Assembly (NCBI GenBank): GCA_937927895.1
Contig: CALGKA010000012.1
Location: 124,001-188,000 of the forward strand
Direction of reading: 5' to 3'
DNA from: an uncultured Granulosicoccaceae bacterium
Lineage (GTDB): Bacteria; Pseudomonadota; Gammaproteobacteria; Granulosicoccales; Granulosicoccaceae
Length of the DNA stretch: 64,000 nucleotides
Position 1 is the first letter of the stretch; each line of letters begins with the position of its first letter. Position numbers and translations under genes: made by a program. Of the stretch, positions 39,673-48,127 are shown piece by piece. The notes beneath the pieces were generated by a model. It did no database searches. It was not told where the DNA came from and saw nothing but the letters and a program-made list of their open reading frames with translations.

Positions 39673-41565
39673 ATGAACGCTGCAGCAGAACAAGTCTCGC
39701 CTGAATTAAGTGATGATTTGCAACAATCTACTGTCGGCGAGATCAACGCCGATCACACGCTAGATTCAAGCAATGACGAAAAAGCCGTTCAAAGTGTTAG
39801 AGCAGAAGGCCTAAACAGCGAACTCGCTAACAAGTGGCTAATGTGGCAGTGCAAGATGATCGCAGACGTGATCACCGGCGTTGTTTACGATCCCAACGGC
39901 AACATGCTAGCCATGCGACCTTCCAACGGTGCTGGCTCTGAAAAACTAGCGATCGCCGGCCAACAGGCGTTTGAAAACAACAAACCTGTTATTACCACCG
40001 AAGTCACCTTCGGTAATTCGAACGGACGTCTTGGCGATATTATTGCCACCCCGGTTAAAGATGGTGAAAAAACACTAGGTTACGTTGCGTTACTAATGAC
40101 TCCAAGACCGCAGTCGCGCCAAAACGTTGTATTACAACTGCTTCAGTGGGGCGGTTTTTGGTTGGAATCATTGAGCCAAATTTCCGACGGTGTACAAATC
40201 GAAGCCGGTGCATTTACGCAATCGCTAACCGCTGAAGTTCTTAAGCATTCAAACTCTCACAAAGCTTGCATGGAAGTCGCCGCTCGTCTGAGTGATCGAC
40301 TGAATTGTGATCGAGTCACTATAGGCTTAAAGCATGGCGTCATCGTGCGCGCTGAATGCATCTCACACCTCGCAGACTTTGACCCCCGGACTCAATTGGT
40401 ACGAAGAATTGAAGCTGCTATGGAAGAGTGCCTTGATCAAGATAGCGCGATCTGCCTGCCCAAACTAGCAGGCCACGAGCAATCAATAGATCAAGCACAT
40501 AAAGATCTGCAAACACATCATAGTGAACATTCCAGTATTGCCACGTTCCCTCTGCTAGGGCGCGAAGAGTACGGCGCCATAACACTTGAACGACCCGCTG
40601 CTAGTCCTTTTGACAGTGACACCATTCAATGGTGCGAGTCAGTACTAGCCGCCATCGCACCTATTATTGAGCTAAAACGATTCGATGAACGCTCAATATT
40701 TAGCAAAGCAAAAGACTCATTGCGTGCTTCAGTTGCAAGCTTACTTGGCCCCAAGCATCTTAAATGGAAAATGGCTGGAGTTGCAGCGGCTGCCACTGTA
40801 TTGCTTGCCAGTATCTTCAATGGCAATCACATTGTTTCAGCACCCGCCTACGTTGAAGGTGCAAAGGCGCAAGTTATTGCAGCGCCTATCGCAGGTTTTG
40901 TAAAAACCTCAGAAGTTCGCGCTGGTGATACGATCAAGAAAGATCAAGTATTGGCAACCCTCGATGATCGCCCTCTACAACTCGAACTTCGAAAATGGCA
41001 GGGTGAAGAAAATAAAATCAAAAAAGCCTATCAAGAAGCAATGGCTAAAAAGGCCCGTACAGAGCTTAGTATCTTACGCGCTAAGTCAGAACAGATTGAA
41101 GCAGAACACGCACTGGTTCTTGAGCGCATCGAACGCACAGAGCTAAAAGCACCTTACGATGGTTATGTTACAAGCGGTGACCTGAGCCAATCCCTTGGTG
41201 CACCAGTTGATATTGGCGATGTGCTTTTTGAAGTAGCACCAATTGAAGAATACAAAGTAATCGTTAAGGTCAACGAACGCGATATGGCAGGCGTTGATGA
41301 AAATAAAATCGGCAAGGTAGTAATGGCTGCAATGCCTGGTGATCCGATCCCGTTCACTGTCAATCAAGTCGTACCAATGGCAATCTCAGGTGACGGCAAT
41401 AGTTACTTCCGTGTTGAAGCGCAGTTTGATAACGCCACACCAGACCTACGACCAGGCATGGAAGGCGTTGCCAGAATCGAAATGGGTGAAAGAAAGCTTA
41501 TTTGGATTTGGACTCACAAGCTTGTTGATCGAGTCAGATTATGGCTATGGTCTGTTGGTTGGTAA
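39673..41565 (+). CDS. GAF-domain HlyD-type membrane fusion protein
   Basis: A 630-aa protein, ATG with GGAG about 8 nt upstream. The cytoplasmic N-terminal half includes two GAF-like regions (about 50-145 and 195-335, e.g. LSDRLNCDRVTIGL and TFPLLGREEYGAITL). One membrane helix follows (about 366-384). The periplasmic half has a biotinyl-lipoyl domain (VIAAPIAGFVKTSEVRAGDTIKKDQVLATLDD, about 401-432), a short coiled coil, the second lipoyl half (LKAPYDGYVTSGDL) and a beta-barrel region. A sensor fused to an HlyD adaptor is unusual. It suggests export gated by a cytoplasmic ligand. It is first gene of a three-gene unit. Confidence 0.85.
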   Translation: MNAAAEQVSPELSDDLQQSTVGEINADHTLDSSNDEKAVQSVRAEGLNSELANKWLMWQCKMIADVITGVVYDPNGNMLAMRPSNGAGSEKLAIAGQQAFENNKPVITTEVTFGNSNGRLGDIIATPVKDGEKTLGYVALLMTPRPQSRQNVVLQLLQWGGFWLESLSQISDGVQIEAGAFTQSLTAEVLKHSNSHKACMEVAARLSDRLNCDRVTIGLKHGVIVRAECISHLADFDPRTQLVRRIEAAMEECLDQDSAICLPKLAGHEQSIDQAHKDLQTHHSEHSSIATFPLLGREEYGAITLERPAASPFDSDTIQWCESVLAAIAPIIELKRFDERSIFSKAKDSLRASVASLLGPKHLKWKMAGVAAAATVLLASIFNGNHIVSAPAYVEGAKAQVIAAPIAGFVKTSEVRAGDTIKKDQVLATLDDRPLQLELRKWQGEENKIKKAYQEAMAKKARTELSILRAKSEQIEAEHALVLERIERTELKAPYDGYVTSGDLSQSLGAPVDIGDVLFEVAPIEEYKVIVKVNERDMAGVDENKIGKVVMAAMPGDPIPFTVNQVVPMAISGDGNSYFRVEAQFDNATPDLRPGMEGVARIEMGERKLIWIWTHKLVDRVRLWLWSVGW

Positions 41566-41568
41566 GTT

Positions 41569-43773
41569 GTGAAATCTATTATACCAAATACACAAACAGA
41601 GCAAGCGGAAATAGATTTGCCAGCTGACGCTGAGCAGGATATTCCTGAACAGTGGAGCAGTGTTGCATCGCTTACACCACAGCTACACAAACATGTAACT
41701 GCGCACCCACATGAATTTAGAGGATCCCGCTGGTACATTTTAAGTGATGCCGCCCGTGGAAAGCATTTACGCTTTAACGATATTGCCTATGAGTTTATAG
41801 GCCGCCTCGATGGCGATCTAAGCGTTGAAGAAATCTATGCTCAGATTAGTAATAAGCTCGGAGAAGAAAGCCCCACCCGGCATGATCTTCTACAAATACT
41901 AATGCAAATGTTTAGCATCGGCGCGCTACGAACAGGCCTACCCGCTGATGTAGAACAGCTCTTTAAAAGAAGTCAGGCTGAAAAAAGCGTTGCTCGCACC
42001 AGGCGCTTATTAAACCCGCTAGCGATACGCTTTCCGCTTTACGATCCAGACAATTTTCTTAACAAAACCATCACTGCTGTACGCTCTGTAATATCTACTG
42101 GCGGCACTATAGTGTGGGCTATTGTTATTTGTCTGGCGGCGATGTTGCTTTTGGTCCACTTCCAAGAACTCACTGCAACGCTTAAGTCAGATGTGCTGGC
42201 TCCACGCAATATCATACTAACGATATTGTTATTTCCAGTAATGAAAATATTCCACGAATTTGCACACGCCTATGCAATTAAAACATGGGGCGGTGAAGTT
42301 CATGAAATGGGTATTACATTGCTAGTGTTAATGCCCGTACCTTATGTAGATGCTACTGCTGCCTGGGCATTTCGCGAAAAATACAAGCGCATACTAGTGA
42401 GTGCGGCCGGCATGATTGTGGAACTATTCCTCGCCGCAGTTGCACTCATTGTCTGGACATTAGTAGAGCCCGGAATAATAAAAGATGCGGCTCTTTCAGC
42501 ATTTCTAATTGGAAGTGTCTCGACCGTTCTATTCAATGCAAATCCACTGTTACGATTTGATGGCTACTACATACTGCAAGATCTAATAGAAATTCCAAAT
42601 CTTTACAGTCGTTCAGCAAAATACATTCTCTATCTTCTGAAACGCTACGTGCTTGGTTTAAACGATGCAGCATCACCTGCTACTGAACATTCAGAATGGC
42701 CATGGCTTGCAGGCTATGGAATTTCAGCATGGTTTTATCGTGTATTTATTACTTTTGTAATCGCCATGTTTTTAGCCGATAAGTACCCGGTATTGGGTAT
42801 TGCGTTGGCTTTTTGGTCATTGGCTCTTCTAATTGTGCTGCCACTGTATCGCGCAGTCCGTTATTTACTTATCGATAAATCTTTAAAAGGGAACCGCATG
42901 CAGCCTATCGGCAGAACTGCGGCACTCGCCGCATCCATCGCAGTCGTTGTTTCACTGATCCCTTTTTCTCTCTATACCAATGCTGAAGGCATTGTCTGGG
43001 TACCCGACCAAGCTCAAATATATGCTGAAGTCGATGGTTTTGTCGCTGACGTCAATACCAGCCCAGGTGAATTCGTAAAAGCCGGCAGCACTGTCATGAG
43101 CATGGTCAACCCTGATATAGATGCCCGAGAGGCCGTGCTACGCGCCAAGTATAAAGAACTTACTATTCGTCATAAGTCAGAGGAATTTTCAGAACCGGCG
43201 CAGGCTGTTCAAACTCGCGAAGGAATGAAAACAGTAGAGGCAGACTGGGACGAACTACAAACTGAAAAAAATTCACAAACACTGGCAAGTGGCGTTGACG
43301 GGACCTTTGTTTTACCGGGTGAGCAAAACATGGTTGGCCGCTACTTTACAAAAGGTGAAGCCATCGGCTACGTGGTGAACCCTAAAGATTTAATAGTACG
43401 GGTGGTTGTGCCGCAAACTTCAGTAGGGCTATTTTCGGAAAAAGTTAGAAACGTATCAGTACGTTTGGCGGAACAACCCGGTGTTGCAATCAGTGCAAAT
43501 ATAATCCGGCAAACACCTGCTGGAAGTTTTTCCCTCCCTAGCCGCGCCCTTGGTGCCGCCGGTGGAGGAGACATTGCTGTAGACAGCACAGATCAGAATG
43601 GCACAACGGCTGCGAATAAGGTCTTTCAGTTGGACTTATCTCTTCCTGAAGACAGTATCACCAGCGGCTTAGGAACACGCGCGTATGTACGCGTTAATCA
43701 TGGCCGTGAAGCACTGGCAAAACAGTGGCTACGCAGTGCCCAACAATTATTACTTAACAAACTTCCGTTTTGA
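41569..43773 (+). CDS. PqqD-like / M50 metalloprotease / lipoyl-HlyD fusion membrane protein
   Basis: A 734-aa protein from a GTG, 3 bp after the upstream stop. Residues about 45-125 resemble a PqqD-like winged helix (LRFNDIAYEFIGRLDGDLSVEEIY). Membrane helices carry the site-2-protease zinc motif HEFAH (229-233) and the second ligand motif NANPLLRFDGYY (322-333). After several more helices, the C-terminal periplasmic part (about 465-725) contains two biotinyl-lipoyl half motifs. It thus combines a possible peptide-binding domain, an intramembrane protease core and an export adaptor. The substrate is unknown. Close family members occur with HlyD genes, but I cannot name a characterised one. 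Confidence 0.85.
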   Translation: MKSIIPNTQTEQAEIDLPADAEQDIPEQWSSVASLTPQLHKHVTAHPHEFRGSRWYILSDAARGKHLRFNDIAYEFIGRLDGDLSVEEIYAQISNKLGEESPTRHDLLQILMQMFSIGALRTGLPADVEQLFKRSQAEKSVARTRRLLNPLAIRFPLYDPDNFLNKTITAVRSVISTGGTIVWAIVICLAAMLLLVHFQELTATLKSDVLAPRNIILTILLFPVMKIFHEFAHAYAIKTWGGEVHEMGITLLVLMPVPYVDATAAWAFREKYKRILVSAAGMIVELFLAAVALIVWTLVEPGIIKDAALSAFLIGSVSTVLFNANPLLRFDGYYILQDLIEIPNLYSRSAKYILYLLKRYVLGLNDAASPATEHSEWPWLAGYGISAWFYRVFITFVIAMFLADKYPVLGIALAFWSLALLIVLPLYRAVRYLLIDKSLKGNRMQPIGRTAALAASIAVVVSLIPFSLYTNAEGIVWVPDQAQIYAEVDGFVADVNTSPGEFVKAGSTVMSMVNPDIDAREAVLRAKYKELTIRHKSEEFSEPAQAVQTREGMKTVEADWDELQTEKNSQTLASGVDGTFVLPGEQNMVGRYFTKGEAIGYVVNPKDLIVRVVVPQTSVGLFSEKVRNVSVRLAEQPGVAISANIIRQTPAGSFSLPSRALGAAGGGDIAVDSTDQNGTTAANKVFQLDLSLPEDSITSGLGTRAYVRVNHGREALAKQWLRSAQQLLLNKLPF

Positions 43774-43799
43774 AGTTAACAACGCTTGGTACAACACAA

Positions 43800-44645
43800 A
43801 TGAATCTACTGAAAAATAGTTTGACTATCGCAGCTTGCGCACTGATACCTTTTTCAGCATTTGCTGAAGGAGATACAGCATCATTGTTGGCTGACCCTGA
43901 AACCACCTTGGATTGCCTGATCGAACCCAGTCAGTTGGTAGAGATTGGCAGCAGTGTCCCCGGACTTGTCGAGCAATTGCATTTCGAAAGAAATAATTTT
44001 GTTAACGAAGGCGAGATTGTGGCACAACTTGATTCACGTGTAGAGCTAGCCTCACTTGAGCTAGCCACCGCCCGTGCCGAGATTGACACCAGCTTAAACC
44101 TACGTCGTGAAAATGCAGCGTTCGGCATGCGCACACAAAAGCGCAACCAACAGCTATTCAACGAATCTACTATTTCAGCACAAGATATGGACAAGGTAAA
44201 AACCGAAACCTATATCGCGCAGCTACAGGCACGCCAGGAAGAAGATAACAAAAGAATCGCCGTTCTCGAAGCCGAGCGCGCTCGCCAAGCACTGGAAAGA
44301 AGAACTATTCGCAGCCCAATCAGTGGCGTTATTGTTGAACGCTACAAGGCAGTTGGCGAGTATATCGAAGCAGAGCCTGTATATCGCATCGCGAACCTTG
44401 ACCCTTTACATGTTGAGCTAATTCTGCCCGTTGAGCAGCTTGGCACTATTGATTTAGGCATGAAAGCAGAGATTTCACTCGATATTCCTTCGCAGGAAGG
44501 AGTCAAACATGTTGCCGTGGTAAAGAGTGTTGACCGCGTAGCTGATGCTGCAAGTGGCACTTTTGGTGTTCTTTTATCAATGCCAAACTCTGGCCTGAGA
44601 ATACCAAGCGGCGTACGTTGCAACTTAAGCATGCTAGAAGAATAA
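43800..44645 (+). CDS. Periplasmic adaptor (RND/HlyD-type membrane fusion protein)
   Basis: A 281-aa protein from the ATG at 43800, which gives a clean signal peptide (MNLLKNSLTIAACALIPFSAFA). An alternative TTG at 43770 overlaps the upstream stop codon as TTGA. A lipoyl half VPGLVEQLHFERNNFVNEGEIVAQLDSRVE is followed by a coiled-coil hairpin (about 80-155), then RRTIRSPISGVIVERYKAVGEYIEAEPVY and a beta barrel. It has no membrane helix, so it would be the periplasmic bridge between the PqqD-M50 protein and an outer-membrane channel (a TolC is not in the window). Confidence 0.87.
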   Translation: MNLLKNSLTIAACALIPFSAFAEGDTASLLADPETTLDCLIEPSQLVEIGSSVPGLVEQLHFERNNFVNEGEIVAQLDSRVELASLELATARAEIDTSLNLRRENAAFGMRTQKRNQQLFNESTISAQDMDKVKTETYIAQLQARQEEDNKRIAVLEAERARQALERRTIRSPISGVIVERYKAVGEYIEAEPVYRIANLDPLHVELILPVEQLGTIDLGMKAEISLDIPSQEGVKHVAVVKSVDRVADAASGTFGVLLSMPNSGLRIPSGVRCNLSMLEE

Positions 44646-44654
44646 CTGGTTAGC

Positions 44655-44676
44655 CGGCGGAGCTAGACCCCCGCCG
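44655..44676 (+). other. Hairpin after the adaptor gene
   Basis: A perfect 6-bp stem CGGCGG/CCGCCG around AGCTAGACCC, 10 bp past the adaptor stop. The following TTGCCATCT is not a proper T tract, so it is at best a partial terminator between the export genes and the c-di-GMP gene. Confidence 0.4.
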
Positions 44677-44759
44677 TTGCCATCTAAACCTTAATTGAAA
44701 AATAATGTTTCCAAGCTAAGCATAGAAACCAAATAGAAAACAATTGGGTTTAGATAAAT

Positions 44760-44864
44760 ATGAATGAGCCGACAATGTTGCTGTGCGCTACCAGCGATGG
44801 AAAAAAAATCGAAGGATCTGTCGAAGTGCCAGATAAATTTATGCGCGGTATGGTGGCTGTATAA
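44760..44864 (+). CDS. Small ORF, 34 aa, just before the GGDEF-EAL gene
   Basis: An ATG ORF encoding 34 residues, beginning MNEPTMLLCATSDGKKIEG and ending VAV. Its stop lies 2 bp before the GGDEF-EAL start. There is no good Shine-Dalgarno. It could be a translational-coupling leader, a short peptide substrate of the upstream export genes, or chance. I recognise no homologue. The rest of the 221-bp gap holds the hairpin at 44655-44676 only. Confidence 0.3.
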   Translation: MNEPTMLLCATSDGKKIEGSVEVPDKFMRGMVAV

Positions 44865-44866
44865 CT

Positions 44867-47800
44867 ATGATGAAATTCCTACGCTCTCCTTTATTTAGAA
44901 TAAGCTTCAGTATGGTGATGCTTGTCATCTCGATACTTCTTGCCGCTGAATTCTTAGGCCTATTCCCAAACAACAACAACGCACGCTACGCTGAGCGCAA
45001 GTTTATCGTTGAGACCCTTGCAGTCCATGTTGCCATGGAAATGGATAGTAGTTCGGGTGAAAACAGTGAAGAAATCTCTGAGCTTCTTCGTACCACAGTA
45101 CAACGCAATAGCATTGTACAATCTGTTGCCGTAAGAAAATCCGATGGCTCAATGGTTGACGTCTATGGCAGCCACGATGCCAACTGGACACTAAAACCTG
45201 ATGAACGCTCTACCCCAACCCAAGTACAAGTACCGTTGTTCGAGGGTAAAGATCAGATCGCCAGTGTCGAAATTCGATTCGCAGGTCTCAACGAGGGCTT
45301 AAGCCTTCTTGATAGACGTGCGTCGTTCGCATCCGTTATTCTCTTTGTAACCCTATCAGGATTTTTTGCCTTCTGCTTGTTCCTTAAAAGGACCCTGCGC
45401 GAGCTTGATCCAGATGCTGTAATTCCAGAACGCGTTAAAAAGGCACTCGATACACTAGCCGAAGGCTTGTTGATCGTCGGTAAAGACGGTGAGATAGTAT
45501 TTTCAAACGCAGAATTTGCAGAAACCGCCGGAATCGCGTCTGAAGATCTTGCCGGGCAAAATTGCAACAAGCTTCGCTGGCACCTGGAAAACGACGAAGA
45601 GCTACCATGGAACAATCTTCTGCGCGGCGGAGAGATGCCACCGGAAGCGACCATCAAACTCAACACTGGTTACGAACAGCTATCCACTTTCACTGTTAAT
45701 GCGACAGCAATTATTGCGGGTGCCAATGAAGTGAGAGGTGCGCTTGTTACTTTTAACGATATCACCCAAGTAGAAATTAAGAACGCAGAGCTTCAAAACG
45801 CGCTAACCAAACTTGAAACAAGCCAGCTGGAAATTACCAGACAAAACAAAGAGCTCGAGTACTTAGCAACTCGTGATCCATTGACGGGTTCATTGAACCG
45901 CCGTTCGTTTTTTAGCGGTTTCGATTTGATATTTGAGGAAGCGACGCAAAATGGTGACGAGCTCACCTGCATCATGACCGATATCGATCACTTTAAAGCC
46001 GTGAACGATACGCATGGACACGGTGTTGGTGATGATGTAATTAAATATCTAGCAGATGTGCTTGCCGAACATTCACGACCCAACGATCTAGTCGGGCGTT
46101 TTGGCGGGGAAGAATTTTGTATCGTGCTACCCAACACAACCATCGAAGAAGGTCACGCGATTGCAGAAGAAATTCGCCATGTTATTGAATCGGGTATCGG
46201 GGCCGAATCATTCTTTGAAAAATGCCAGATTACGGCAAGTTTTGGTGTTGCGTCAATTCACTCAAATCCAGCAACCCCAAGTGACATGGTAGAACAGTCT
46301 GATAAGGCGCTCTATGTTTCAAAAGAAAGCGGCAGAAACCGCGTAACTAATTATTTCGCAGCTATGGATGATGAAGATTTCGACATAGCAGAGGCAGCAA
46401 TTAAGGCACATGCTGAACCTTCAAAACCCGCTGTAGCTGCACCCAAGGTTCCAATACTAGCCGTTCGTGCCACCGCTGCCGGAGCACCCAAAGTTGCAAA
46501 AACAGAAAAACCAGTAACTGATACTCCAATAATAAAGCCTGTTAAAACAGAGCAGACCGAAAGCGACGTTGTACCGTTATTTGCAGATAGTAGTCCCACG
46601 CCTGTACTTAAAGTATCGAACAACAAAGCGTCAGTCACAGAGCTCGACACCTCCGGCGGTGACTCACTACGCTTAGACAGAAGCCTACTACTGGATCGAT
46701 TAGAACAATCGCTAGAGACTGCTGAAAAGGGCAACCATCATGTCGGAATTCTACTAATATCTATCGAAGCGTTGCACCGCATCAATGACACACTAGGTTT
46801 TACTGTTAGCGAAAAGCTCTACAGAAATATCGTTCGACGCTTAAAGAAAACCCTTAAAGAAGAAGCAAACACTTCTATTATTGGTTCGGATAAGCAGAGC
46901 ATTTCGATTTCTCGCTACGGTGACACTGAAATTTGTTTAGCACTCCACCATCTTAATGATCTTGAAGATACACAGGTCATTCACAGCAGAATACTTGAAG
47001 CATTTGATCGAACAATTTCTGTCGATGGTCACGAAATATACGTAGCACTTGATACCGGCATTGGCATCTATCCGAACAACGGCAACAATGCTGATAAACT
47101 AATGCGATGCGCCAGCATCGCAATGCGAGAAGCCAGAGAAATTGATGGCCAGAACAACGTCTGCTACTTTCAGGATGATCTCGACACCAGTTCACGCAAG
47201 CTAATACGTCTTGAGACCGCACTGCACCATGCTCTGGCGCGCAACGAATTTTTTGTGGTATACCAACCGAAAGTTGACCTCAAAACAGGCAGCATCGTTA
47301 GCATGGAAGCGTTACTAAGATGGCGTCACCCTGAAATGGGTATTGTGACTCCCGGTGAATTCATTCCTGTCGCTGAAACCACTGGCCTCATTAACGATAT
47401 AAGTGCATGGGTTACCCGTGTTGTATGCGCTCAATTATCAATGTGGACCGATGCAGGTTATGAAAAACTAACCGTGTCTGTCAATGTCTCACCCGCTGAA
47501 ATGAAAAACGAATCACTGGCAGACAACATCCTCGATTCGATTCAAGAATTCGGCATATCCGCCAACCGACTCGAAGTTGAAATCACCGAATCAATGGCTA
47601 TGAAAGATATGAAAAAGGCCGTTACCACTCTAGAGAAGCTCGACCGCGCCGGCGTAGAAATTTCAATCGATGACTTCGGCACCGGTTACGCATCACTAAG
47701 CTATCTGAAGCAGTTCCCGATCAGCAAAGTAAAGATTGACCGCCTATTCGTATCTGACTTTAAAAAGAACCCTGCGGATGCTCGTATTGTCAGTGGTGTT

Positions 47801-48127
47801 ATTGCGATGAGCCATAGCTTGGGCATGACGGTAGTATGCGAAGGCGTAGAAGATATTGAACAGCTGAGATTTATTCAGGATCATCACTGCGATGAAGTGC
47901 AAGGCAACTTATTGAGCCTTCCACTGCAGCGCCAAGAGGCAACGGCTTTATTGGCTAACCCCAGAAGAATACGTCGCTTAGTGACTGAATACACTGTATC
48001 TGATTTGGGCATGTCATCGATTCACACCAGTGGCACATCAGCATCAATTTCGGGTGTTTTGAACGAATTTCCAGATCTAAGCACTGATAGCACTGACCAC
48101 ACTGAAGACAATGTAGCCGTGAGTTAA
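44867..48127 (+). CDS. Membrane PAS-GGDEF-GGDEF*-EAL c-di-GMP enzyme
   Basis: A 1086-aa protein with membrane helices at about 12-30 and 155-173 flanking a periplasmic sensor. It continues with PAS (about 190-300), a coiled coil (300-333) and a full GGDEF domain (333-500, active site GGEEF 413-417). A disordered Pro/Lys/Thr-rich linker (500-600) leads to a second, degenerate GGDEF-like domain (605-770, site RYGDTE). An EAL domain (785-1035) ends the protein. The EAL domain keeps EALLRWRHP, NVSP, EITES, IDDFGTGYASL and the catalytic Lys in KVKIDR, so it could cleave c-di-GMP. The late motif reads VCEGVE/QGNLLS instead of AEGVE/QGYLFS. The start is MM (ATGATG). Confidence 0.92.
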   Translation: MMKFLRSPLFRISFSMVMLVISILLAAEFLGLFPNNNNARYAERKFIVETLAVHVAMEMDSSSGENSEEISELLRTTVQRNSIVQSVAVRKSDGSMVDVYGSHDANWTLKPDERSTPTQVQVPLFEGKDQIASVEIRFAGLNEGLSLLDRRASFASVILFVTLSGFFAFCLFLKRTLRELDPDAVIPERVKKALDTLAEGLLIVGKDGEIVFSNAEFAETAGIASEDLAGQNCNKLRWHLENDEELPWNNLLRGGEMPPEATIKLNTGYEQLSTFTVNATAIIAGANEVRGALVTFNDITQVEIKNAELQNALTKLETSQLEITRQNKELEYLATRDPLTGSLNRRSFFSGFDLIFEEATQNGDELTCIMTDIDHFKAVNDTHGHGVGDDVIKYLADVLAEHSRPNDLVGRFGGEEFCIVLPNTTIEEGHAIAEEIRHVIESGIGAESFFEKCQITASFGVASIHSNPATPSDMVEQSDKALYVSKESGRNRVTNYFAAMDDEDFDIAEAAIKAHAEPSKPAVAAPKVPILAVRATAAGAPKVAKTEKPVTDTPIIKPVKTEQTESDVVPLFADSSPTPVLKVSNNKASVTELDTSGGDSLRLDRSLLLDRLEQSLETAEKGNHHVGILLISIEALHRINDTLGFTVSEKLYRNIVRRLKKTLKEEANTSIIGSDKQSISISRYGDTEICLALHHLNDLEDTQVIHSRILEAFDRTISVDGHEIYVALDTGIGIYPNNGNNADKLMRCASIAMREAREIDGQNNVCYFQDDLDTSSRKLIRLETALHHALARNEFFVVYQPKVDLKTGSIVSMEALLRWRHPEMGIVTPGEFIPVAETTGLINDISAWVTRVVCAQLSMWTDAGYEKLTVSVNVSPAEMKNESLADNILDSIQEFGISANRLEVEITESMAMKDMKKAVTTLEKLDRAGVEISIDDFGTGYASLSYLKQFPISKVKIDRLFVSDFKKNPADARIVSGVIAMSHSLGMTVVCEGVEDIEQLRFIQDHHCDEVQGNLLSLPLQRQEATALLANPRRIRRLVTEYTVSDLGMSSIHTSGTSASISGVLNEFPDLSTDSTDHTEDNVAVS

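What the first reader, a model, noticed from the sequence alone, without database searches (positions are those of the whole stretch)
39673..48127. Uncharacterised three-part export/processing unit beside a c-di-GMP enzyme
Three tightly packed genes (gap of 3 bp, then overlap or 26 bp) encode a GAF-sensor fused to an HlyD adaptor, a PqqD-like domain fused to an M50 intramembrane protease core and a lipoyl adaptor, and a free periplasmic adaptor. The zinc motif HEFAH and the second NANPLLRFDG motif are intact, so the protease may be active. PqqD domains bind peptide leaders in known RiPP systems and M50 enzymes cut in the membrane. A reasonable model is a ligand-gated machine that binds, cuts and exports a peptide or lipidated substrate, possibly controlled by c-di-GMP through the following PAS-GGDEF-GGDEF-EAL protein. 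I cannot match it to a named system.
Basis: partly seen in the sequence, partly recalled or inferred. Interest (0 to 1): 0.75.

Follow-up and report, generated by a model that had tools for sequence, protein, structure and literature searches.

The report
Protease-adaptor exporter for giant surface proteins
Three neighbouring genes encode an uncharacterised machine that, judged by its relatives, recognises a short front-end tag on giant surface proteins, probably trims it with a membrane protease and helps send the proteins out of the cell, a job not assigned to any named secretion system that I could find.

Summary
In detail: a GAF-HlyD adaptor, a PqqD-like/M50/HlyD fusion with intact zinc motifs and a free periplasmic adaptor, followed by a PAS-GGDEF-GGDEF-EAL protein. 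The four-gene order is kept in 9 of 9 related loci that reach that far. A small-peptide substrate is not supported. Relatives of the M50 protein lie beside, and co-occur with, genes for giant surface proteins starting with an LEPR-type leader: of 299 genomes, 85 have the M50 protein, 96 have LEPR-XLL or DUF4347 proteins, 81 both. The M50 tree splits in two (support 100): class A (GAF-HlyD, sometimes with a SecA-like ATPase) goes with LLSAD-type leaders, 24 of 24 read; class B (mostly TolC operons) with MFDGA-type leaders, 31 of 31. The window is class A with no giant gene beside it; its genome has five LEPR-XLL hits elsewhere in long frames. No ABC transporter gene is part of the window's unit. 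Best reading: a leader-reading protease-adaptor that processes and exports giant proteins. Association is shown; binding, cutting and export are inferred. My searches of an open-access library found no description.

The parts
39673..41565 (+). Adaptor 1 (P0001): sensor-like and GAF region, one membrane span by eye, HlyD part
   Evidence: GAF 2.2e-8 at 196-329, HlyD_D23 4.9e-17 at 397-596; GAFH profile 440 bits
40258..40659 (+). GAF domain of P0001 (residues 196-329)
40861..41460 (+). HlyD part of P0001 (residues 397-596)
41569..43773 (+). PqqD-like/M50/HlyD fusion (P0002), class A, no adjacent giant gene
41737..41916 (+). PqqD-like domain (residues 57-116), proposed leader reader
   Evidence: 18.5 bits, below cut-off; profile to PqqD 3g2b E 1.1e-4 and to TfuB1 6jx3 0.043
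42253..42267 (+). HEFAH zinc motif (residues 229-233)
   Evidence: H, E, H invariant in P0002 and 11 relatives; HExxH in 117 of 117 frames
42535..42564 (+). NANPLLRFDG second M50 motif (residues 323-332)
   Evidence: N, P, F, D invariant in P0002 and 11 relatives; pattern in 113 of 117, N, P and D kept in the other four
43009..43506 (+). HlyD part of P0002 (residues 481-646)
43800..44645 (+). Free periplasmic adaptor (P0003, from the likely ATG start)
   Evidence: TIGR01730 112.5 bits, cut-off 94.9
44867..48127 (+). PAS-GGDEF-GGDEF-EAL protein (P0004), conserved neighbour
   Evidence: EAL domain 47219-47923

Best explanation
The three genes are the inner-membrane and periplasmic core of a dedicated processing and export system for giant repeat-built surface proteins that carry an N-terminal LEPR-type leader. 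Proposed working: (1) the PqqD-like domain of P0002 binds the leader (class A: E..LEPRxLLSAD); (2) the M50 core in the same chain cuts the leader at the membrane, probably near the S-A-D or D-G-A positions; (3) the HlyD parts of P0001 and P0002 and the free adaptor P0003 build a periplasmic conduit to an outer-membrane channel (TolC in many relatives, a ShlB/FhaC-type protein in one clade), through which the unfolded protein passes; (4) push comes from a SecA-like ATPase where one is encoded, elsewhere from an unknown source. The window's copy has no giant gene beside it and would serve several giant proteins encoded elsewhere in the genome; the GAF domain and the EAL protein would tune it. 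Shown: the unit, motif conservation, genomic association, and leader class following protease clade. Inferred: binding, cutting, conduit, energy, regulation.
For: Co-occurrence in 299 genomes of the phylum: LEPR-XLL in 50, M50 profile in 85, both 48 (Fisher 1.5e-29); LEPR-XLL or DUF4347 in 96, both 81 (odds ratio 269, 5e-52). In 56 near genomes (own included) the 30 with LEPR-XLL are all among the 35 with M50. Co-location: 27 of 81 LEPR-XLL hits have a listed M50 gene within 10 kb and 34 of 81 have one on the same contig; these are lower bounds, since one search scored at most three candidates per genome and capped its list. Leader class follows protease class, 24 of 24 and 31 of 31 read, on a tree whose A/B split has support 100. 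Named examples: Thalassospira LEPR-XLL gene, DUF3467, HlyD, M50, adaptor, TolC; Methylosinus with a 26.5 kb giant gene, SecA-like protein and TolC; Azospirillum DUF4347 gene, TolC, adaptors, M50. The window's protein lies in a supported clade (98) whose members L062, L064 and L065 have an LLSAD giant directly downstream. Own genome: five LEPR-XLL hits, and a class B locus with its own giant. Leader motif against controls: 31 and 30 hits in 2790 frames, reversed 1 and 0, shuffled 0.05 and 0 per pass.
Against: No experiment. The control is not clean: the LapA retention module, another giant-adhesin mark, over its cut-off is in 30 genomes, 13 with M50 (odds ratio 2.1, p 0.085), but at E 1e-5 it is in 101, 56 with M50 (odds ratio 7.3, p 6e-13); so part of the co-occurrence may reflect lineages rich in giant adhesins. 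Genomes are related, so p-values overstate independence. The window's unit has no giant, TolC or SecA-like gene beside it; its genome shows one SecA hit, in a 913-codon frame as expected of the general SecA. SecA-like genes are in 27 of 64 class A and 0 of 51 class B loci, so the energy source is open. 13 genomes have DUF4347 and 2 have LEPR-XLL without a detected M50; 4 have M50 without either. No giant lies beside the unit in the nine nearest loci that can be judged. One giant of ten whose C-terminus was read (Thalassospira) has RTX repeats, and three have matches, below cut-off, to the BapA/Bap/LapF large-adhesin model; a Vibrio LEPR-XLL giant with RTX is in print (PMC10868602, passage). 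Type I export of some giants is therefore possible. The PqqD match is weak in the single protein.
Confidence: 0.66

Rival explanations
1. The unit only matures the giant proteins: it removes the leader or anchors them, while the bulk of export is by the general Sec route or a separate type I system.
For: SecA-like ATPase and TolC are missing from many class A loci including the window; one of ten giant C-termini has RTX repeats and three match the BapA/Bap/LapF adhesin model below its cut-off; a Vibrio LEPR-XLL giant with RTX is in print (PMC10868602, passage).
Against: Several adaptors per unit and a TolC gene in 39 of 51 class B loci make little sense for a protease alone; no ABC-like frame was seen next to and in line with a unit gene, with the limits told in the full report; no match to a type I C-terminal target model in the 10 C-termini scanned.
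Confidence: 0.21
2. A peptide or RiPP maturation and export system, related to daptide or epipeptide proteases.
For: Nearest named protease model is the daptide protease NF041824 (157.6 bits, aligned over 2-365 of 379), then YydH/LiaK.
Against: Below the model's cut-off of 300 bits; the one short frame tested is not conserved beyond fragments; giant genes are the recurring partners.
Confidence: 0.06
3. The copies without an adjacent giant, like the window's, have left the giant-protein job and now work as a c-di-GMP-linked sensor or another exporter.
For: No giant beside the unit in the window clade; instead an EAL gene in 24 of 37 such class A loci.
Against: In 56 near genomes LEPR-XLL occurs only where an M50 unit occurs; motifs and all three parts are kept; the window genome has five LEPR-XLL hits with class A type leaders, four SAD and one SVD.
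Confidence: 0.1
4. An ordinary small-molecule efflux assembly.
For: Both separate adaptors match TIGR01730 (RND adaptor subunit) over its cut-off.
Against: No RND or MFS pump is annotated beside the unit in the nine plasmid regions read (not scanned for elsewhere), nor among the five window neighbours examined; an M50 protease sits where a pump would be.
Confidence: 0.03

Closest known systems
Type I secretion (HlyB-HlyD-TolC)
   Same: HlyD-type adaptors, TolC in many relatives, very large adhesin-like substrates
   Different: No ABC transporter in the unit; proposed signal is N-terminal; an M50 protease sits in the inner membrane
Peptidase-containing ABC exporters for bacteriocins (recalled)
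   Same: Leader-cutting protease built into an exporter
   Different: Zinc intramembrane protease instead of a cysteine protease, fused to an adaptor instead of a transporter; substrates of thousands of residues
Daptide and YydH/LiaK M50 leader proteases (NF041824, NF058609)
   Same: M50 core, and for the daptide model also the N-terminal region, align
   Different: Scores far below the cut-offs; here fused to HlyD and linked to giant proteins, not small peptides
Accessory Sec (SecA2) export of large adhesins
   Same: A second SecA-like ATPase beside a giant surface protein in part of class A
   Different: With adaptors and, in some, TolC; the one SecA-like protein read against Pfam (L084) has no scaffold/wing match; none in the window's genome
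Two-partner secretion (ShlB/FhaC)
   Same: Six class A loci have a ShlB-type outer-membrane protein near the unit
   Different: Five leaders read there are of the LLSGE or MLSGE kind; absent from the window; TpsA domains were not searched for
LapA/LapD/LapG c-di-GMP adhesin control
   Same: c-di-GMP enzyme beside a giant-adhesin system; LapA-like modules do co-occur with M50 at a loose threshold
   Different: No LapA retention match in the window's genome; weaker co-occurrence than the LEPR and DUF4347 proteins

Membership tests
Type I secretion system | ABC transporter with the adaptor | tested here: not met
   Not in the window's unit. ABC-like frames within 8 kb in 16 of 118 loci, none adjoining and in line with a unit gene; L195 has two next to M50 on the other strand, L184 two some 5 kb downstream on the same strand; three query proteins only
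Type I secretion system | C-terminal secretion signal on the substrate | tested here: inconclusive
   10 giant C-termini scanned: no match to a C-terminal target model; one with RTX repeats, one with a sub-cut-off T1SS-143 repeat, three with sub-cut-off BapA/Bap/LapF matches
Type I secretion system | HlyD adaptor and outer-membrane channel | tested here: inconclusive
   Adaptors met; TolC not beside the window's unit, but in 39 of 51 class B and 3 of 64 class A loci, one of the three weak
M50 site-2 protease | HExxH and NxxPxxxxD | tested here: met
   Window; HExxH in 117 of 117, second pattern in 113 and N, P, D kept in the other four; Pfam M50 alone 22.4 bits, below 27.2
PqqD/RRE leader-binding domain | PqqD-type winged-helix sequence | tested here: inconclusive
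PqqD/RRE leader-binding domain | binds a leader peptide | not testable with these tools
   only the leader-class correlation
Daptide protease NF041824 | score over the curated cut-off of 300 bits | tested here: not met
   157.6 bits
RiPP gene cluster | conserved short precursor gene | tested here: inconclusive
   one 34-codon frame tested against 10 loci, only fragments match; other short frames not tested
LEPR-XLL proteins as substrates | encoded in the same genome and linked to such units elsewhere | tested here: met
   five hits in the own genome; 27 of 81 within 10 kb of a listed M50 gene in the phylum sample
LapD/LapG adhesin control | LapA-type retention module in the genome | tested here: not met
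   none in G000 at E 1e-5; LapD and LapG themselves were not searched for

The most novel reading that the evidence does not exclude
A separate class of Gram-negative secretion system: an N-terminal LEPR leader is read by a PqqD-like domain and cut by an M50 intramembrane protease fused to a HlyD adaptor, which takes the place of the ABC transporter. It has at least two receptor-leader classes (LLSAD and MFDGA), an optional SecA-like motor, and a choice of TolC or ShlB-type exit. It carries proteins with open frames of up to some 19,000 codons.
Probability: 0.5. Interest if true: 0.93.

Novelty: categorically new. Interest (0 to 1): 0.82.

Why it matters
Bacteria of this phylum, many marine or soil-living among the named examples, encode surface proteins of thousands of residues (LEPR-XLL hits lie in open frames up to 19,427 codons) that begin with LEPR-type leaders. 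How these proteins leave the cell has no proposed answer in the papers my searches reached. The finding ties leader, protease and adaptors into one testable system, predicts which leader goes with which protease, and gives annotators a reason to rename 'PqqD family' and 'HlyD family' genes beside giant genes. If the M50 core replaces a transporter, it is a new way to couple leader cutting to export.

Tried and rejected
Small-peptide substrate: the 34-codon frame at 44760-44864 gives only fragments in ten related loci, the best DNA match in the nearest relative L036. SecA-like gene in trans in the window's genome: one SecA hit, in a 913-codon frame, so no extra one. IncHI Ig-like proteins RSP and RSP2 as studied members: the papers assign their export to the plasmid's type IV system (PMC6764697 and PMC8730810, passages), so not the same. 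LapA retention proteins as a negative control: unclear over the curated cut-off (13 of 30, p 0.085), clearly positive at E 1e-5 (56 of 101, odds ratio 7.3); many of the weaker matches cover only about positions 3-68 of 145. Hydrophobicity as proof that leaders are not Sec signals: 60 of 61 windows have no 19-residue stretch over 1.6, but the adaptor P0003's own signal scores only 1.48, so this does not decide. One of the 31 class A motif matches looks like chance.

Leader counts: the raw script gave class A 17 SAD and 0 DGA, class B 28 DGA and 2 SAD, and one DGA in a locus of unclear class. On reading, L096 is IMLDGAG (the pattern had caught a later stretch) and L178 is a frame without giant context and was dropped; L127 was added; L130, L135, L136, L138, L149, L116, L119 and L124 were read by hand (five are LLSGE or MLSGE and one LLNAD, counted with SAD). 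For 61 of the 117 M50 rows (39 A, 20 B, 2 unclear) no leader was read: no giant is adjacent, its start lies outside the fetched DNA, or the pattern missed it.
Full report
What is there. Window 39673-48127 holds four genes on the + strand: P0001, sensor-like and GAF region plus HlyD; P0002, PqqD-like domain, M50 core and HlyD; P0003, a free adaptor, likely from ATG 43800; P0004, PAS-GGDEF-GGDEF-EAL. The window belongs to a 4.55 Mb genome in 168 contigs. Its nearest named relatives are mostly Granulosicoccaceae MAGs. Five neighbours outside the block that I examined are ordinary: DUF4197, cytochrome c, Na/H exchanger, GDSL lipase, alcohol dehydrogenase.

Conservation. GAF-HlyD, M50, adaptor and the EAL protein stand in this order in 9 of 9 loci L036-L044 that reach that far; L045 ends inside the M50 gene. 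The M50 protein was found in 35 of 57 near genomes, own included, at E 1e-20 or better. In P0002 and eleven relatives (21-41% identical to it) the HExxH and N..P...FD residues are invariant. Of 117 M50 frames used in the tree, 117 hold HExxH and 113 match the second pattern; the other four keep N, P and D but vary the F or G.

The lead. LEPR-XLL (NF012209) is an N-terminal domain of giant proteins. I recalled an association with M50 genes and tested it. In 56 near genomes, 30 have LEPR-XLL and all 30 are among the 35 with M50 (Fisher 4.9e-11). The five with M50 only are G008, G015, G016, G019 and G043; in G015 and G016 the big gene beside the unit does start with an LLSAD or LFSAD leader that the model missed. 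In a sample of 299 genomes of the phylum, LEPR-XLL is in 50, M50 (E 1e-30) in 85, both in 48; the two exceptions are G265 and G332, the latter a 64-codon frame. DUF4347, a domain that follows the leader in three of the four giants scanned, is in 84 genomes, 71 of them with M50, 13 without; LEPR-XLL or DUF4347 is in 96, 81 with M50 (odds ratio 269); four M50 genomes have neither. Control: the LapA retention module over its cut-off is in 30 genomes, 13 with M50 (odds ratio 2.1, p 0.085), but at E 1e-5 it is in 101, 56 with M50 (odds ratio 7.3, p 6e-13). So some of the co-occurrence may come from lineages rich in giant adhesins, though the LEPR/DUF4347 link is far stronger. Genomes are related; p-values are guides only. 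Of 81 LEPR-XLL hits, 34 have a listed M50 gene on the same contig and 27 have one within 10 kb, gene to gene, frame ends estimated from the listed open-frame lengths. These are lower bounds, because one search scored at most three candidates per genome and capped its list.

Neighbourhoods. Annotated plasmids show the layout plainly. Methylosinus pMSC49a: LamG giant (26.5 kb gene), DUF3467, adaptor, PqqD-family protein, a gene labelled prepilin peptidase whose product is 38% identical to the SecA-like protein of L084, adaptor, TolC. Thalassospira: LEPR-XLL gene of 12.1 kb, DUF3467, HlyD, M50, adaptor, TolC. Azospirillum: DUF4347 gene, TolC, two adaptors, M50. An E. coli IncHI1B plasmid: Ig-like gene of 11 kb, TolC, two adaptors, M50; this M50 gene is in 24 of 5426 complete E. 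coli genomes by megablast. Over 118 fetched loci with an M50 match, 64 were class A (GAF-HlyD adaptor profile), 51 class B (the other HlyD profile), 3 unclear. A SecA-like gene is in 27 of 64 class A (two of them weak, 28 and 65 bits) and 0 of 51 class B; TolC in 3 (one weak, 35 bits) and 39; the free adaptor in 47 and 49. These numbers depend on profiles I built from six or fewer seeds each, and many loci are cut by contig ends. Six class A loci have a protein similar to a ShlB/FhaC-type outer-membrane protein.

Leader and protease go together. The M50 tree (117 rows, quick method) has the A/B split at support 100. The unclear rows were kept in it: two fell on the B side, one on the A side. 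Leaders could be read for 24 class A and 31 class B loci: 24 of 24 class A are of the LLSAD kind (LFSAD, LYSAD, LLSGE, LLNAD and LFSAT included), 31 of 31 class B of the MFDGA kind (MLDAA, LFDAT and the like included) (Fisher 4e-16). The raw script result and my corrections by reading are in Tried and rejected. A second level: the six loci with ShlB-type genes form one clade (support 100), and the five whose leader was read have LLSGE or MLSGE. Motif matches in the first 270 residues of 2790 frames: 31 class A, 30 class B; reversed frames 1 and 0; shuffled 0.05 and 0 per pass. Class A leaders also share an E five residues before the R (30 of 31).

The window's unit. It is class A, in a clade (support 98) whose members L062, L064 and L065 have an LLSAD giant directly downstream. 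The window has none. Its genome has five LEPR-XLL hits on four contigs, in frames of 1,998 to 3,942 codons, four with SAD and one with SVD, three of them also with DUF4347, plus one class B locus with TolC, adaptors, M50 and its own IMLDGA giant. The simplest reading is an exporter that serves giant proteins encoded elsewhere. In place of the giant gene stands the EAL gene: within 8 kb in 24 of 37 class A loci without a giant, 1 of 27 with one, 1 of 51 class B, 0 of 3 unclear. The 27 were named by hand from the maps; for a few of them (such as L081 and L134) a big neighbour was seen but no leader read. The genome has 18 EAL hits in 4.55 Mb. The 24 come from near genomes, so this is one long-kept linkage, not many independent ones.

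How it may work. The N-terminal part of P0002 resembles PqqD (profile to 3g2b 1.1e-4; 5 of the 12 rows of A1, P0002 included, match Pfam PqqD at 0.05). PqqD and RRE domains bind leaders in RiPP systems (established, recalled). The nearest named protease model, the daptide one, is aligned over nearly its full length, PqqD-like region included, at 157.6 bits against a cut-off of 300; the daptide protease is predicted to remove the leader (PMC12338566, passages). I therefore propose leader binding by the PqqD-like part, cutting by the M50 part, and passage through adaptors to TolC or a ShlB-type pore. No ABC transporter is part of the window's unit. ABC-like frames lie within 8 kb in 16 of 118 loci; none adjoins a unit gene in line with it, but L195 has two next to M50 on the other strand, and L184 has two some 5 kb downstream on the same strand (maps). 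The energy source is suggested only where a SecA-like ATPase is present; the one read against Pfam (L084) matched the motor and preprotein cross-linking domains but no scaffold/wing domain.

Against. Nothing is shown by experiment. The window's unit lacks giant, TolC and SecA-like neighbours. Of ten giant C-termini scanned, one (Thalassospira) has RTX repeats, three match the BapA/Bap/LapF adhesin model below its cut-off and one a T1SS-143 repeat below its cut-off; a Vibrio LEPR-XLL protein with RTX is in print (PMC10868602, passage). A type I route is thus possible for part of them. Hydrophobicity did not settle whether leaders could act as Sec signals.

Print. Searches for M50/PqqD/HlyD, LEPR-XLL (20: two papers), DUF4347 (33: four papers), site-2 protease with HlyD, SecA or giant protein (34), type I secretion with M50 (73), PqqD/M50/giant/SecA (90) and LEPRxLL or DUF3467 (99) listed no paper that, by title and abstract start, joins these parts; some searches looked at IncHI and daptide work. 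The library is open-access only. Passages seen: PMC10868602, PMC6764697, PMC8730810, PMC12338566, PMC8277102 (first 300,000 characters held), PMC3482391; other papers only as search listings.

Verdict. The finding is real and, I think, more interesting than stated. It looks ordinary neither as efflux nor as RiPP machinery. It fails the defining test of type I secretion (no ABC transporter) and the score test of the daptide family, so I do not file it under either, although it may work like a mixture of both.

Noticed in passing
L130, L134-L136, L138, L149: Six class A loci carry a protein like ShlB/FhaC near the unit, and the five leaders read there end in LLSGE or MLSGE rather than LLSAD.
   Followed up: partly
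L123, L125 (E. coli IncHI1B plasmid): A class B locus with an 11 kb Ig-like gene whose product starts with a QLFDGAA leader; the M50 gene is in 24 of 5426 complete E. coli genomes.
   Followed up: partly
L056 (own genome, contig C61): Second, class B unit of the same genome: TolC, adaptor, HlyD, M50 and a giant gene with an IMLDGA leader and DUF4347.
   Followed up: yes
window 40000-48000: GC skew is near 0 here against about -0.1 in much of the window; the block is one of four co-directed + strand genes.
   Followed up: no
window 44760-44864: A 34-codon frame between the adaptor and the EAL gene; only fragments match in relatives.
   Followed up: yes
L116 18195-20111: A SecA-like protein annotated as prepilin peptidase; its counterparts are called translocase, hypothetical protein or SecA in related plasmids.
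   Followed up: yes
own contig C4 near 43345: An LEPR-XLL giant gene of the own genome (from 28910, 3495-codon frame) is followed within some 4 kb by another EAL match.
   Followed up: no
G115 contig C115: An LEPR-XLL hit lies in an open frame of 19,427 codons.
   Followed up: no
L116, L119, L120, L121: A small DUF3467 gene stands before the adaptor in several class A loci, after the giant gene where that is annotated; role unknown.
   Followed up: no
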